The notes below the pieces were generated by a model, which worked only from the letters and a program-made list of their open reading frames with translations, did not search any database and was not told the origin of the DNA. 35,902 bases of DNA from Rhodobacterales bacterium (GTDB lineage: Bacteria; Pseudomonadota; Alphaproteobacteria; Rhodobacterales; Rhodobacteraceae): the NCBI GenBank assembly GCA_002746935.1, contig PDRW01000006.1, positions 1-35,902 on the forward strand, given 5' to 3'. The position numbers and the translations under genes are program-made. Positions 12,893-35,902 of this stretch are shown piece after piece. How positions within the stretch are numbered: position 1 is the stretch's first letter; each line of letters opens with the position of its first letter.

Positions 12893-13130
12893 GATGGTTG
12901 ACGAAACCTTAACGGTCTGCGCCCTGTGGCGCGAAGGGGCGTTTAACCTGCTGTTTTATATGAGCAAAAGTGCATTTTCATTAATCCGGTATTCCGGACT
13001 AATGAACTTTCCCGGCAAGCCGGAAATCCGCCCTGCGCCGGGCCTTCCCTCCGCAGCGGGCCGTCCGACCTCCTCTGCCCTCCGCGGCAGCTCCGGCCTT
13101 CTGCCCGCCACGCCGCGGCCCCCAGGGCCG
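12893..13130. repeat. Tandem intergenic element, copy 1
   Basis: This is the first unit of a 237-base tandem repeat. An 84-base core (12943-13026) is identical, base for base, to 13180-13263. The core is AT-rich inside GC-rich DNA. It holds a 13-base inverted repeat with one mismatch (12977-12989 and 12994-13006, loop TATT) and a second hairpin TTTC(C)CGGC-AA-GCCGGAAA (13008-13026). The flanks, including a CCTCCTCTGCCCTCCGC stretch near 13069, are similar but not identical to copy 2. Confidence 0.8.
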
Positions 13131-13360
13131 ACCATTGGCAAAACGTTAACGCCCTGTGCCCCCACGCGCGCAGAATCGCTTAACCTGCTGTTTTATATGA
13201 GCAAAAGTGCATTTTCATTAATCCGGTATTCCGGACTAATGAACTTTCCCGGCAAGCCGGAAAGCCACCCCGCACCGGGGCCTTCCCCCCGCAGCGGACC
13301 GTCCGGCCTCCTCTGCCCTCCGCAGCAGGTCCGGCCTTCTGCCGTCACCGCCCGGGAGAG
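13131..13360. repeat. Tandem intergenic element, copy 2
   Basis: The second unit is shifted by exactly 237 bases. The core at 13180-13263 carries the same inverted repeats (13214-13226 with 13231-13243, then 13245-13263). Each core is preceded by a TTAACG box about 30-40 bases upstream (near 12910 and 13145) and opens with TTAACC. It ends close to the 3' end of the XRE-cupin gene. The unit could be a small-RNA gene, a protein-binding site or a mobile repeat; the sequence alone does not decide. Confidence 0.8.
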
Positions 13361-19334: not shown

Positions 19335-19600
19335 CCGTTTGGAACACGGGCGGCGGCGCGGGGCTCCGCCCAATCCGCTTGAGGATTGGGTCAGGTATAG
19401 GTGAGGGGCTCTGCCCAATCCGCTTGAGGATTGGGCCAAGTATACGCCCCTCACGCTCCCCGGAGTATTTCGACCAGGAAAAAGGGGATGCGGGGGACTG
19501 GAGGGCGCGGGCGGAGAATTTGGCGAGGACTTCGGGCGGGAGCCTTTTCGCGCCCGGCGATCCCTGTCATGATCGGCGCGACCAACAGGGAGCCCGGATC
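19335..19600. repeat. Intergenic repeat cluster: two hairpin units and a GGAGTATTT motif
   Basis: A 40-base unit GGGGCTCYGCCCAATCCGCT... occurs at 19360-19399 and again at 19405-19444. Each contains CCCAATCC and GGATTGGG arms with loop GCTTGA. The second copy is enclosed by GTGAGGGGC (19401-19409) and its exact inverse GCCCCTCAC (19446-19454). Directly after it comes CCCCGGAGTATTTCGACCAG and then GAAAAAG (19458-19484). From memory, this association of a C/G hairpin with GGAGTATTT and an A-rich tail is frequent between genes in Rhodobacteraceae. No gene is visible in the 329 bases between eno and the next CDS. Confidence 0.7.
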
Positions 19601-32329: not shown

Positions 32330-32496
32330 TATTCGCACCCCAGGGTCGGCTTGCGGAACCCGTCCACGATCCACTGATCGCCCGATTTCACCGCCGTCAG
32401 CGTATAGGCGCAGGTCTGCGAACAGGGCATGCAGGCGGTGCTGGTGATCCCGCCCTTGACGCCCCGGGCCCGGGTCATGTCTTTGCCTTTCATCAT
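32329..32496 (-). CDS. 55-residue Cys-rich small protein between nuoG and nuoH
   Basis: The frame starts at the ATG 32494-32496, which overlaps the nuoG stop (ATGA), and ends with TAG overlapping the GTG of the lipoprotein gene. It is therefore locked between its neighbours by coupling at both ends. The sequence contains [20 protein letters not shown] and ends [11 protein letters not shown], with Cys at 22, 25, 29 and 54. The C-x2-C-x3-C arrangement could bind metal or form disulfides. There is no signal peptide or membrane helix. A longer frame running upstream is only the shadow of nuoG. The function is unknown. Confidence 0.65.
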
Positions 32497-34520
32497 TCCG
32501 CCGCGATCCTCCCCGCCTTGCGCTCCGCTGCGAGGGCGGAGAGGTCGGCCATCAATGCGCTTGCCCGCGCAATCGGGTTGGTGAGATAGAAATCCCTGAT
32601 GGCATTGCGGAAATCTGCCTTTGCCGGGGGTTTCACGGGAAGCGGCGCCCAAGGGTTTTCCGCCAGTTTGTCAATCTGCTGGAGATGCGGCACGGCGGTG
32701 AACATCGCCGAACGCAGGGCGGAATGGGTGTCCCAGCTCTGGGTCGCGCCAAGCTCGGCGCTGAGCGCGCGCAGGATCGCCCAGGATTCCTTCGCCTCGC
32801 CCGGCGGGAAAGCGGCGCGCAGCGCCAGTTGTGGCCGGCCTTCGGTATTGACGAAAATGCCGGTCTCTTCGGTATAGGCGGCGGCGGGCAGGATCACATC
32901 CGCCCGGTGCGCGCCGCGGTCGCCGTGGGAGCCGAGATAGATCACCCTGGGCCCCGCGGCAATCTCGATCTCGTCGGCGCCGAGGTTGAAGATCACATCC
33001 GCCCCATCGGTGGCCGCCGCCAGCCCGCCTTCGGTGGTCGCGCCCACGTCCATCGCCCCCACCCGGCCCGCGGCGGTGTGCAGCACCATGAATTTCGAGT
33101 TGGACGTCTCCGCGAGCCGCATCGCCAGCGCCAGCACCGCCTCGCCATCGGCCTCGCTGATCGCGCCCTGGCCGATGATCACCAGACTGTCGGGCACCGG
33201 GCTGTCGGGCACCGGGGCCGCGCCCTCGACCAGATCCTCGAGCGCCGCGCGTCCGGTGCCGAGATGGGTATAATCGTAAGTCAGATCAACGGCTTCGCCG
33301 ACCAGCGCGATCTCCGCCCCGCCCGCCCAGGCCTTGCGGATGCGCGCGTTCAGCACCGGGGCTTCGTCGCGCGGGTTGGTGCCGATGAGCCGGATCACCT
33401 GCGCGCTGTCGATGTCTTCGATCCGCGCGGTGCCGACATAGGCCGAGCGGTTGCCCGCGGGCAGTTTCGCGCCATCGACCCGGCATTCGACCCGGCCACC
33501 CTGCCCTTCGATCAGCTGCTTGAGCGAAAACGCCGCCTCGGCCGAGGCAAGATCGCCCACCAGCCCGGCGAGCTTCTTCGCGCCCCTGATCGCTTTGGCC
33601 GCGGCCGTCAGAGCCTCCGCCCAGCTCACCGGCTGAAGCCGCCCGTCCTTGCGCAGATAGGGCCGGTCGAGCCGTTGGCGGCGCAGCCCGTCCCAGACGA
33701 AACGGGTCTTGTCGGAGATCCATTCCTCGTTCACCGCGTCATGGTTGCGCGGCAGGATCCGCATCACCTCGCGGCCCCTGGTGTCGACCCGGATGTTGGC
33801 GCCCAGCGCGTCCATCACGTCGATGGTTTCGGTCTTGGTGAGCTCCCAGGGCCGCGCGGTGAAGGCATAGGGCTTCGAGGTCAGCGCGCCCACCGGGCAG
33901 AGGTCGATGATATTGCCCTGAAGGTTCGAATTCAGCGTCTGGCCCAGATAGGAGGTGATCTCCGCATCCTCGCCCCGGCCGGTCTGGCCCATCTGGGTGA
34001 TCCCCGCCACCTCGGTGGTAAAACGCACGCAGCGGGTGCAGGAGATGCAGCGGGTCATGGTGGTGGCGACCAGCGGCCCGAGGTCGAGATTGTCGCAGGC
34101 CCGCTTGGGTTCGCGGAACCGGCTCATGTCGACGCCGTAAGCCATCGCCTGATCCTGAAGGTCGCATTCGCCGCCCTGATCGCAGATCGGGCAGTCGAGC
34201 GGGTGGTTGATGAGCATGAATTCCATCACCCCTTCGCGGGCCTTCTTCACCATCGGCGAATTGGTCCTGACCACCGGCGGCTGGCCCTCCGGCCCGGGCC
34301 TGAGATCGCGCACCTGCATGGCGCAGGAGGCGGCGGGTTTCGGCGGACCGCCCACCACCTCGACAAGGCACATGCGGCAATTGCCGGCGATCGACAGCCG
34401 CTCGTGATAGCAGAAGCGCGGCACCTCGATACCCGCCACTTCCGCCGCCTGAAGGATGGTCATGGCGCCATCCACCTCGAGCTCCATGCCGTCGATGACG
34501 ATTTTCTTCGCCTCGCCCAT
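32493..34520 (-). CDS. nuoG: NADH-quinone oxidoreductase subunit G
   Basis: NuoG is the large iron-sulfur subunit of the peripheral arm. The 675-residue protein has a ferredoxin-like N-terminal domain starting [20 protein letters not shown], with the [2Fe-2S] ligands C37, C48, C51 and C66. Then come [18 protein letters not shown] (His-Cys-rich [4Fe-4S] motif) and [18 protein letters not shown] with [15 protein letters not shown] for the second [4Fe-4S] site. A molybdopterin-like domain without cofactor residues follows. It is shorter than the E. coli subunit (about 900) and closer to the Paracoccus type. The ATG at 34520 is one base after the stop of the small membrane protein gene, preceded by GGGAAGG. 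Partial copies of its N-terminus recur upstream (see the A-type frames). Confidence 0.95.
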
Positions 34521-34521
34521 G

Positions 34522-34908
34522 TCAAACCTTCCCGTCTTGCGGCGCTGCGCCGGTGGACTTCCGTCTCGTGGTTATGAGCCCGTCGATGGGCCAGCGTTTG
34601 ACGGTGAGCCAGATCATCAGCAGAAAAGTCACCAGAGAAGCAGGCCCAAACAACAGGGAACTGAGCCCACGCATCCAGCGCCATCCGGCATTGTTCTCGT
34701 CGAGAAACAGAGCCGCCTCAACGTCGAAAAACCGGATCAGCAGCACCGAGGCACTCAGCACCATCACCATCGCCAGCACCCAGAGCCATGCCAGCGCCGT
34801 TTTGTCATGGAGCGTGCGCTTGTAAATTGTGGGCAGACAGACGGCCACCACAGACAAGGACACGCAGGCGAATGAACCGAAAAGCAATACCATGGGGACC
34901 GCAATCAC
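34522..34908 (-). CDS. Small membrane protein B1 directly upstream of nuoG
   Basis: The 128-residue protein has three hydrophobic segments: [40 protein letters not shown], and [19 protein letters not shown]. The common tail [20 protein letters not shown] then PQDGKV follows. It starts at a GTG (34906-34908) that overlaps the stop of A1 (GTGA). An ATG five codons later is the alternative. Its last codons contain the GGGAAGG that serves nuoG one base beyond its stop. It is clearly related to B3 (similar length, same WLW...AxVMxxSxSVxLIxFF and [10 protein letters not shown] patterns). I do not recognise a named family. Given its position it may be one of the unassigned reading frames of rhodobacterial nuo operons. 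Confidence 0.75.
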
Positions 34909-35066
34909 AACTCAGTCCGGCCGGCCCTGGCAGCCCGGTTCCGGCCTTCGATTTCACCGCGCAGCGCCTGCACCGCAATGCCCGCTGCTTGCACCTGACG
35001 GATGGTCATGGCGCCAGCTGCCTTGATCTCCATGCCATCGATGACGATCTTCTTCACCTCGCTCAT
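34905..35066 (-). CDS. A1: 53-residue NuoG-N-terminus-like frame
   Basis: It begins [20 protein letters not shown] then TIRQVQAAGIAV, aligning with [20 protein letters not shown] and [13 protein letters not shown] of NuoG. The rest (QALRGEIEGRNRAARAGRTE) lacks the cluster-binding Cys residues, and a stop overlaps the next start. The ribosome site and one-base spacing to the upstream B2 stop are the same as at nuoG. It could be translated as a free peptide, act only as a coupling device, or be a decaying duplicate. The intact frame and diverged sequence make pure recent debris less likely. Confidence 0.55.
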   Translation of the reverse strand: MSEVKKIVIDGMEIKAAGAMTIRQVQAAGIAVQALRGEIEGRNRAARAGRTEL

Positions 35067-35067
35067 G

Positions 35068-35211
35068 TCAACCCTTCCCGTCTTGCGGGGCTGCGCCCGC
35101 CCTATACCGTCGCGCCTCGATGCGCCTGTCTATGGGCCAGCGTTTGGCCACCAGCCCGAACACCACGCTCAGGTAAATACCGAACCTGCCCAATAACACA
35201 AAACCAATCAT
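35068..35211 (-). CDS. B2: 47-residue single-helix membrane peptide
   Basis: This is a shortened relative of B1 and B3. MIGFVLLGRFGIYLSVVFGL matches only their last membrane segment. The shared tail VAKRWPIDRRIEARRYRAGA then APQDGKG follows. Its ATG overlaps the A2 stop (ATGA), and its stop is one base from the A1 start. The 3' part is identical in DNA to the partial B4 at the window end. It is too small for normal gene calls, but it is open, has a proper start context by coupling, and carries the family tail. Confidence 0.55.
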   Translation of the reverse strand: MIGFVLLGRFGIYLSVVFGLVAKRWPIDRRIEARRYRAGAAPQDGKG

Positions 35212-35291
35212 GGCTCACTCCGCCCCGATCCGCCCGGCCCCGGCCGTCCGACTTCCCTGCCGTCGATGACGATCTTCTTCACCTGGCTCAT
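35208..35291 (-). CDS. A2: 27-residue NuoG-N-terminus-like frame
   Basis: It reads MSQVKKIVIDGREVGRPGPG then GSGRSEP and stops. Only the first eleven or twelve residues match NuoG. The remainder is Gly/Pro/Arg-rich spacer. The start has the same GGGAAGG-TGA-N-ATG context after B3, and the stop overlaps the B2 start. It is a minimal translational linker between B3 and B2 if it is used at all. Confidence 0.45.
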   Translation of the reverse strand: MSQVKKIVIDGREVGRPGPGGSGRSEP

Positions 35292-35292
35292 C

Positions 35293-35667
35293 TCAACCCT
35301 TCCCGTCCTGCGGCGCTGCGCCGGTGGACGTCCGTTTCGTTGCCCTGAGCCCGTCGATGGGCCAGCGTTTGGCCGCGAACCAGATCGTCAGCAGAAAAGT
35401 CACCAGAGAAGCGGGTCCAAGCATCAGGAAACCGAACGCACCTAACCAGCGCCATCCCGGATTGCGGTCGTAGAGGGGCAAAACCTGCTCGTGGCCGAAA
35501 AACGTGATCAGGTGCACCGAGACACTCACCGCCATCACGATCGCCAGCCCCCAGAGCCATGCCACCACCATATTCCCGTGGCCCGCGCGCCGATACAACA
35601 CGGCAAGGCAGACAGCCACCACGGACATCGACACGCAGGCGAACATACCGAGGAAGGGTGCGATCAT
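35293..35667 (-). CDS. Small membrane protein B3
   Basis: This 124-residue homolog of B1 has three hydrophobic segments: MIAPFLGMFACVSMSVVAVC, MVVAWLWGLAIVMAVSVSVH and [20 protein letters not shown]. The tail [20 protein letters not shown] then APQDGKG follows. The loop between helices 2 and 3 (GHEQVLPLYDRNPGWRWLGA) corresponds to [20 protein letters not shown] in B1. The strong conservation of the last 60 residues and weaker match before suggests selection or recent conversion on the C-terminal half. It starts three bases after the A3 stop. The function is unknown. Confidence 0.7.
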   Translation of the reverse strand: MIAPFLGMFACVSMSVVAVCLAVLYRRAGHGNMVVAWLWGLAIVMAVSVSVHLITFFGHEQVLPLYDRNPGWRWLGAFGFLMLGPASLVTFLLTIWFAAKRWPIDGLRATKRTSTGAAPQDGKG

Positions 35668-35670
35668 GGC

Positions 35671-35820
35671 TCATTCCACCGCAACCCGGCAGGCCCTGGC
35701 GGCGCGGATCCGGTGTCCGATCCCGCCGCACAGCACCGATACCCCGATGCCCGCCAGTTCCACCGCCCGGAGGGTCATGGCGCCATCCGGCCCGATCTCC
35801 CTTTTCTTCACCTCGCTCAT
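35671..35820 (-). CDS. A3: 49-residue NuoG-N-terminus-like frame
   Basis: It reads MSEVKKREIGPDGAMTLRAV, then ELAGIGVSVLCGGIGHRIRA and ARACRVAVE. Alignment with NuoG extends to about NuoG residue 54: GAMT-x-x-x-x-E-x-AGI-x-V is shared, VLCGG stands where NuoG has RFCYH (cluster ligand C37), and ARACRVAVE stands where it has [10 protein letters not shown] (C48, C51). So this is a two-residue-shorter, cluster-incompetent copy of the first ferredoxin strand-helix region. The start context is as for nuoG. B3 begins three bases after its stop. Confidence 0.5.
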   Translation of the reverse strand: MSEVKKREIGPDGAMTLRAVELAGIGVSVLCGGIGHRIRAARACRVAVE

Positions 35821-35821
35821 G

Positions 35822-35902
35822 TCAACCCTTCCCGTCTTGCGGGGCTGCGCCCGCCCTATACCGTCGCGCCTCGATGCGCCTGTCTATGGGCCAGCGTTTG
35901 GC
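35822..35902 (-). CDS. B4: partial small membrane protein at the window edge
   Basis: Only the last 26 residues are inside the window: AKRWPIDRRIEARRYRAGAA then PQDGKG and TGA. The DNA is identical to the end of B2, which suggests another short B-type gene, but its N-terminus lies outside. Its stop is one base from the A3 start. Confidence 0.6.
   Translation of the reverse strand, partial: AKRWPIDRRIEARRYRAGAAPQDGKG

What the first reader, a model, noticed from the sequence alone, without database searches (positions are those of the whole stretch)
34521..35902. Alternating array of NuoG-start peptides and small membrane proteins upstream of nuoG
Seen: at least three short frames (49, 27 and 53 codons) begin like NuoG (MSEVKK/MSQVKKIVIDG), alternate with B-type membrane frames, and all stop within or just before the next B start (GTGA and ATGA overlaps, or 3 bases). 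All four B-to-A/nuoG junctions keep GGGAAGG, TGA, one base, ATG. Known: rhodobacterial nuo operons contain extra unassigned frames. Inference: repeated unequal crossing-over amplified the nuoG start plus its upstream gene, and the frames were kept open, either as a translation-coupling cascade that sets NuoG synthesis or as accessory complex I peptides.
Basis: partly seen in the sequence, partly recalled or inferred. Interest (0 to 1): 0.88.

Follow-up and report, generated by a model that had tools for sequence, protein, structure and literature searches.

The report
Duplicated nuoF–nuoG gene junction array
In one bacterium related to Sinisalibacter, the boundary between two genes of its main respiratory enzyme appears to have been copied several times, leaving a chain of small reading frames, two of them fusions of the start of one enzyme subunit to the end of the other, through which ribosomes might pass on their way to the next real gene.

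Summary
The array is real. On the minus strand it reads Btail–A1–B1–A2–B2–A3–B3–nuoG, with spacings +1,+3,+1,−4,+1,−4,+1. The window is a whole contig and the array runs off its end; another contig (C29) ends in nuoF plus a further B frame, so the array fills the nuoF–nuoG gap. The unit is nuoF-tail + B + nuoG-head; A2 and B2 are internally deleted. The "conserved" GGGAAGG/TGA/ATG is nuoG's initiation region, whose AAGGTTTGAnATG form also precedes nuoG in two relatives. B is an orphan, matched only in its own genome among 394. B1/B3 dN/dS is 0.86; frame-keeping is only weakly better than chance. Most likely: a lineage-specific duplication whose frames are passengers that remain translatable so ribosomes still reach nuoG. 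An accessory-subunit role is not supported; the coupling cascade is untested and its geometry largely inherited by copying.

The parts
35822..35902 (-). Btail: C-terminal 26 codons of a B frame, cut by the contig end
   Evidence: its 110-nt block is 95% identical to the one spanning the B2-A3 junction
35671..35820 (-). A1: 49-codon NuoG(1-36)::NuoF(tail) chimera with in-frame deletions
35293..35667 (-). B1: 124-codon frame, three hydrophobic stretches
35208..35291 (-). A2: 27-codon frame; nuoG head joined by internal deletion to nuoF tail, tail out of the NuoF frame, stop overlaps B2 start (ATGA)
35068..35211 (-). B2: 47-codon frame, internally deleted B whose start matches B0 on contig C29
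34905..35066 (-). A3: 53-codon NuoG::NuoF chimera; stop overlaps the GTG of B3
34522..34908 (-). B3: 128-codon frame directly before nuoG
32493..34520 (-). nuoG, 675 codons, start 1 nt after the B3 stop
   Evidence: TIGR01973 641 bits
35131..35902 (-). approximate first copy of the ~771-nt higher-order repeat (Btail-A1-B1-A2 head)
   Evidence: families D3 and D4, spacings 771 and 769; outer limits are my estimate
34360..35130 (-). approximate second copy of the ~771-nt higher-order repeat (B2 tail-A3-B3-nuoG head)
   Evidence: outer limits are my estimate

Best explanation
SHOWN by sequence: head-to-tail copies of a unit nuoF-tail + B + nuoG-head lie between nuoF and nuoG; A1 and A3 share one join of nuoG codon ~36 to nuoF codon ~409, where both genes carry CTTC in the same codon phase; A2 and B2 are internally deleted copies. 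INFERRED history: one tandem duplication of the nuoF|B|nuoG boundary made a 55-residue NuoG::NuoF micro-frame between two B genes, followed by a ~771-nt higher-order duplication, deletions and divergence (the one-B ancestor was not seen in the genomes searched). INFERRED function: the frames are mostly passengers at protein level. Because each unit carries nuoF's stop/B-start junction and nuoG's own ribosome-binding site, translation can run from nuoF through each small frame by termination-reinitiation or fresh initiation and still arrive at nuoG. Selection, if any, acts on keeping that passage open (avoiding polarity on nuoG and the genes after it), not on the peptides.
For: Breakpoint scan: chimera score 172 against 110 (all nuoG) or 121 (all nuoF) for A1, and 214 against 155/114 for A3, with coinciding breakpoints. 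C29 carries nuoF TGA-gcc-ATG-B0, the same junction as A1-B1. AAGGTTTGAnATG also precedes nuoG in L089 and L067. Spacings are +1 to +3 or -4 throughout; published tests find coupling efficient only at overlaps or very short gaps, with 15 nt of upstream gene sufficient (PMC10666635, passages read). B1/B3 dN/dS is 0.86. B1/B3 dS of 0.30 is below the 0.42-0.57 to four congeners in nuoF/nuoG. No promoter-like site found, and one terminator-like site against 1.0 expected.
Against: No expression data. Frame-keeping is only marginally non-random (six indels counted by eye, independence assumed) and openness against substitution is not significant. B0-B1 dN/dS of 0.46 (0.24-0.80) points to some past or present constraint on B. 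Junction conservation against the rest of B is weak (9 of 79 versus 45 of 201 differences, p=0.043, stretches chosen by me after seeing the alignment). B0-B1 dS of 1.07 exceeds the genus-level nuo dS and is unexplained.
Confidence: 0.55

Rival explanations
1. Pure neutral decay of a tandem duplication: no frame is maintained, and the open frames reflect high G+C and youth of the array; nuoG starts independently from its own ribosome-binding site.
For: B1/B3 differences even over codon positions, dN/dS 0.86; P(open) 0.43-0.46 per branch under neutral substitution; long open frames also occur on the opposite strand, e.g. 186 codons at 34788-35348; A2 lost the NuoF frame; two of three frames end in coupling range at each A-to-B junction anyway.
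Against: 5 of 6 indels counted by eye keep frame (p=0.018); each frame ends within -4..+3 of the next start; GC3 of 0.72-0.79 in B keeps coding-like periodicity.
Confidence: 0.27
2. B is a functional small membrane protein (for example an accessory complex I or assembly factor) amplified for dosage, with A frames as by-products.
For: Three hydrophobic stretches in B1 and in B3; B0-B1 dN/dS 0.46; the nuoF-nuoG gap of relatives holds other small genes, e.g. DUF3291, DUF5333, MAPEG.
Against: Matched only in its own genome among 394 family genomes (at most ten first-look candidates scored in each), nothing in Pfam or NCBIfam above cut-off; two congeners have a bare 3-nt nuoF-nuoG gap; B2 lost most of the protein; B1-B3 dN/dS near 1; all-helical model of low confidence (pLDDT 59.7).
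Confidence: 0.13
3. Assembly artefact: strain variants or misjoined reads at a repeat.
For: The array ends at contig ends on both sides; draft of 94 contigs, 83.9% complete.
Against: Most copies differ by about 20-25%, with in-frame indels and a shared chimeric breakpoint, which misassembly of one locus does not create; the nuoF and nuoG ends both carry array parts.
Confidence: 0.05

Closest known systems
Tandem duplication with a join-point gene fusion (gene duplication/amplification in bacteria; general knowledge, recalled)
   Same: Head-to-tail copies of one segment with a novel junction fusing the 5' part of one gene to the 3' part of another; later copy-number change possible by unequal recombination.
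   Different: Unit is a gene boundary of under 1 kb, not whole genes; most copies are old enough to be 75-80% identical; fusion frames stay open inside a core operon.
Translational coupling by termination-reinitiation (PMC10666635, passages; PMC6728339, abstract start)
   Same: Overlaps of 4 nt or gaps of 1-3 nt between consecutive frames.
   Different: A chain of at least six small frames of doubtful function between two subunit genes; no experimental test.
Extra unassigned genes inside rhodobacterial nuo operons (recalled for Rhodobacter capsulatus/Paracoccus; interval genes seen here include DUF3291, DUF5333, MAPEG)
   Same: Same nuoF-nuoG position; in at least 43 of 78 distinct intervals an ORF of 20+ codons ends -8..+10 nt from the nuoG start.
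   Different: In 77 intervals over 20 nt none shows a repeated nuoG head at E 1e-3; L088 and L104 show a weak internal repeat of another kind. Among frames of the fetched loci the B profile's only hit below E 0.01 was the rejected L008 frame.

Membership tests
Tandem duplication with join-point fusion | Head-to-tail repeated units | tested here: met
Tandem duplication with join-point fusion | Novel junction joining downstream gene's 5' part to upstream gene's 3' part | tested here: met
   A1 and A3, coinciding breakpoint
Tandem duplication with join-point fusion | Single-copy state in relatives | tested here: inconclusive
   The four congeners with a visible interval (G001, G002, G004, G005) lack the array but also lack B, so the one-B ancestor is not seen
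Translationally coupled frames | Stop and next start overlapping or within about 10 nt | tested here: met
   +1,+3,+1,-4,+1,-4,+1
Translationally coupled frames | Downstream translation depends on upstream translation | not testable with these tools
   needs reporter or ribosome profiling
Complex I accessory subunit | Conserved in relatives with the operon | tested here: not met
   B matched in 1 of 394 family genomes, its own
Complex I accessory subunit | Purifying selection on the protein | tested here: inconclusive
   B1-B3 0.86 (0.52-1.46); B0-B1 0.46 (0.24-0.80); B0-B3 0.58 (0.26-1.04)

The most novel reading that the evidence does not exclude
The array is a functional translation relay: each unit adds termination-reinitiation steps, so copy number sets how many ribosomes that finish nuoF reach nuoG, tuning subunit ratio by expansion and contraction of a repeat. 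The double stops at each A-to-B junction (two of three frames end within range) make the relay tolerant of frameshifts, as A2 shows.
Probability: 0.12. Interest if true: 0.72.

Novelty: new variant of a known kind. Interest (0 to 1): 0.4.

Why it matters
It catches an operon in the act of making new small frames: a gene boundary is copied, fusion micro-frames arise, and each copy brings its own stop, ribosome-binding site and start. If translation really passes through the frames, repeat number would be a simple evolvable dial on subunit stoichiometry of respiratory complex I. If not, it is a clear example of how coupling-like geometry and 'conserved' junctions can arise by copying alone, a caution for small-protein annotation.

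Tried and rejected
A relative of B in G012 (L008, E=2.4e-4; profile E=2e-4) was rejected: the hit lies in a different frame of a long open gene (I would call that gene Tex-like from recall, no family search was made), and the profile search did not list G012 as a match. The hit C91:30557–30592 (query 1130–1168, 85%) was fetched but not looked at further; treated as chance. The nuoG-head pattern scan matched 187 of 394 genomes and I saw no row with two matches, but in the own genome it finds only one of the four heads, so it says little. The 40-residue NuoG-head search matched 193 of 198 genomes; many rows show 2 and a few 3 matches, whose second hits were not examined, the match list was cut, and it reports only 2 of the 4 heads in the own genome, so it does not exclude similar arrays elsewhere. 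The structure of B1 (given without its first residue, four-row alignment) was too uncertain (pLDDT 59.7) for a fold search. PHROGs, PADLOC, the PDB, plasmid and phage collections were not searched. Seven paper searches (open-licence PubMed Central only) listed nothing that by title or abstract start describes such an array; of the listed papers only passages of PMC10666635 were read, PMC6728339 was seen as an abstract start, and the rhodobacterial extra-frame literature is recalled. One search stopped with an error after its main results; its A-frame comparisons were redone with alignments set by hand, its B2–Btail and B1–Btail comparisons were not. The six indels were counted by eye from the DNA alignments; the A3 tail was left out as ambiguous.

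Full report
What is there. The window is the whole of contig C2 of a draft genome (2.81 Mb, 94 contigs, 83.9% complete). At its right end, on the minus strand, seven short frames precede nuoG: Btail, A1, B1, A2, B2, A3, B3. Repeat analysis finds four copies of a 110-nt block around the B-to-A/nuoG junction (80, 80 and 95% identity to the reference copy) and repeats spaced 771 and 769 nt; self-BLAST finds a 666-nt match at 77% identity, E=4e-149.

Beyond the window. A search of the own genome finds 99 nt at 96% identity near the end of contig C29. C29 carries nuoF, then TGA-gcc-ATG and a further B frame (B0) open to the contig end. So nuoF lies upstream, the array fills the nuoF–nuoG interval, and the assembly broke inside it. 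How much is missing between C29 and C2 is unknown.

What the A frames are. A1 and A3 start like NuoG and end like NuoF: A1 ends HRIRAARACRVAVE and A3 ends [13 protein letters not shown], against NuoF DRIRAARAGRIAAE. A breakpoint scan puts the switch at nuoG codon 35–37 and nuoF codon 408–409 in both, with chimera scores far above either parent alone (172 against 110 and 121; 214 against 155 and 114). Both genes carry CTTC there in the same codon phase (read from the sequence printed). An ancestral in-frame chimera of 36+19 residues would explain the lengths: A1 lost six codons, A3 two (inference). A2 is a further internal deletion whose tail is no longer in the NuoF frame. B2 joins a B0-like start to a Btail-like end. 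The amplified unit is thus nuoF-tail + B + nuoG-head.

Why the junctions look designed. A1–B1 keeps the nuoF–B0 spacing TGA-gcc-ATG. The B-to-A junction is nuoG's own initiation region: AAGGTTTGA plus one base precedes nuoG in the congener record L089 (GACGAGAAGGTTTGAGATG) and in Maritimibacter fusiformis L067 (GTCGAGAAGGTTTGAAATG), the only 2 of 78 distinct loci with a stop codon exactly one base before the nuoG start. Spacings are +1,+3,+1,−4,+1,−4,+1, in the range where coupling is efficient in the published tests (PMC10666635, passages read). But at B1, B2 and B3 two of three frames would end in range anyway, so the geometry is mostly inherited and tolerant rather than evidence of selection at each step.

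Selection. B1–B3: dS 0.30, dN 0.26, ratio 0.86 (bootstrap 0.52–1.46), differences by codon position 30/26/28. B0–B1: ratio 0.46 (0.24–0.80); B0–B3: 0.58 (0.26–1.04). A heads are too short to judge (ratios 0.46–1.13 on 26–32 codons). Under neutral substitution B1 or B3 would stay open in 43–46% of trials for half the observed changes and 25–27% for all of them (with an assumed G+C target of 0.66 and transition weight 2). Five of six indels counted by eye keep frame (p=0.018 if independent). The junction is a little more conserved than another stretch of B (9 of 79 against 45 of 201 differences, p=0.043, stretches chosen after the fact). B frames keep a coding-like GC3 of 0.72–0.79, below nuoF/nuoG/nuoH at 0.86–0.90. 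Overall: weak evidence for keeping frames, little for keeping protein sequence in B1/B3.

Relatives. Of seven genomes held for the genus, the own one included, six have a NuoF-like match (G003 none, G006 only a 39% one), and four congeners show the nuoF–nuoG interval: 3 nt in G001 and G004 (the G004 stretch L016 is contained in L044, Sinisalibacter aestuarii), 501 nt with a 142-codon gene in G002, 509 nt with a DUF3291 gene in G005. The G005 insert ends in a copy of the nuoF tail (GGCGGCGGAGTAAGAC, read), a second case of a nuoF-tail repeat at this site in the genus. In all, 80 intervals were measured: 4 from congeners and 76 of the 80 genome-contig loci, themselves the best 80 of 556 relatives in a capped scan; four loci (L055, L063, L065, L098) showed no nuoG start and drop out. 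They are 78 distinct records. Lengths run from 3 to 3209 nt. In the 77 over 20 nt only L088 and L104 show an internal repeat at E 1e-3, neither a nuoG head; in L088 the repeated piece resembles a stretch of nuoF 47–112 nt before its stop (69%), which I did not follow up. That test would miss repeats as short as the G005 tail. B is not found in the other 393 of 394 family genomes at E≤0.001 (at most ten first-look candidates scored in each); in a single-sequence search of 60 genomes including the own, only the own and the rejected G012 matched. B1–B3 dS is lower than dS to congeners in nuoF/nuoG (0.42–0.57), which fits a lineage-specific array, with the caution that nuo genes and B may have different synonymous rates; B0–B1 dS of 1.07 is higher than that range and is unexplained (older duplication or a faster rate).

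Mechanism. Shown: head-to-tail copies of the gene boundary, one shared chimeric join, internal deletions. Inferred: ribosomes can pass through the frames and reach nuoG, and constraint, if any, is on that passage. No promoter-like site was found in the array and one terminator-like site against 1.0 expected. Rivals are neutral decay, a functional B, and artefact; the last is disfavoured by the divergence between copies.

Novelty. The ingredients (join-point duplication, translational coupling, extra genes at nuoF–nuoG) are known; the combination, NuoG::NuoF micro-frames alternating with orphan membrane-type frames, did not show in the listings of the paper searches. I rate it a new variant of a known kind of moderate interest.

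Noticed in passing
window 12898-13352: Two tandem copies of a ~237-nt segment (85-88% identical) between a minus-strand transporter-like frame and a minus-strand regulator-like frame (named by look, no family search).
   Followed up: partly
window 19355-19444: Two adjacent 45-nt repeats (89%) containing a palindrome-like CCAATCCGCTTGAGGATTGG.
   Followed up: no
L024 (congener G005), nuoF-nuoG interval: A DUF3291 gene inserted between nuoF and nuoG ends in a copy of the nuoF tail followed by the TAAGAC-ATG nuoG junction of two congeners, as if the insertion carried or duplicated that boundary.
   Followed up: partly
80 measured nuoF-nuoG intervals: The gap varies from 3 to 3209 nt and carries changing small genes (DUF3291, DUF5333, MAPEG and lipoprotein-like frames by look; six proteins tested): it looks like a hot spot for gene insertion inside a core operon.
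   Followed up: partly
L104, nuoF-nuoG interval: Two adjacent DUF3291-like frames in one interval (60% identical over 129 nt; named by likeness).
   Followed up: no
L088, nuoF-nuoG interval: A stretch at 500-568 of the interval resembles nuoF 47-112 nt before its stop (69% over 71 columns, E=2e-4).
   Followed up: no
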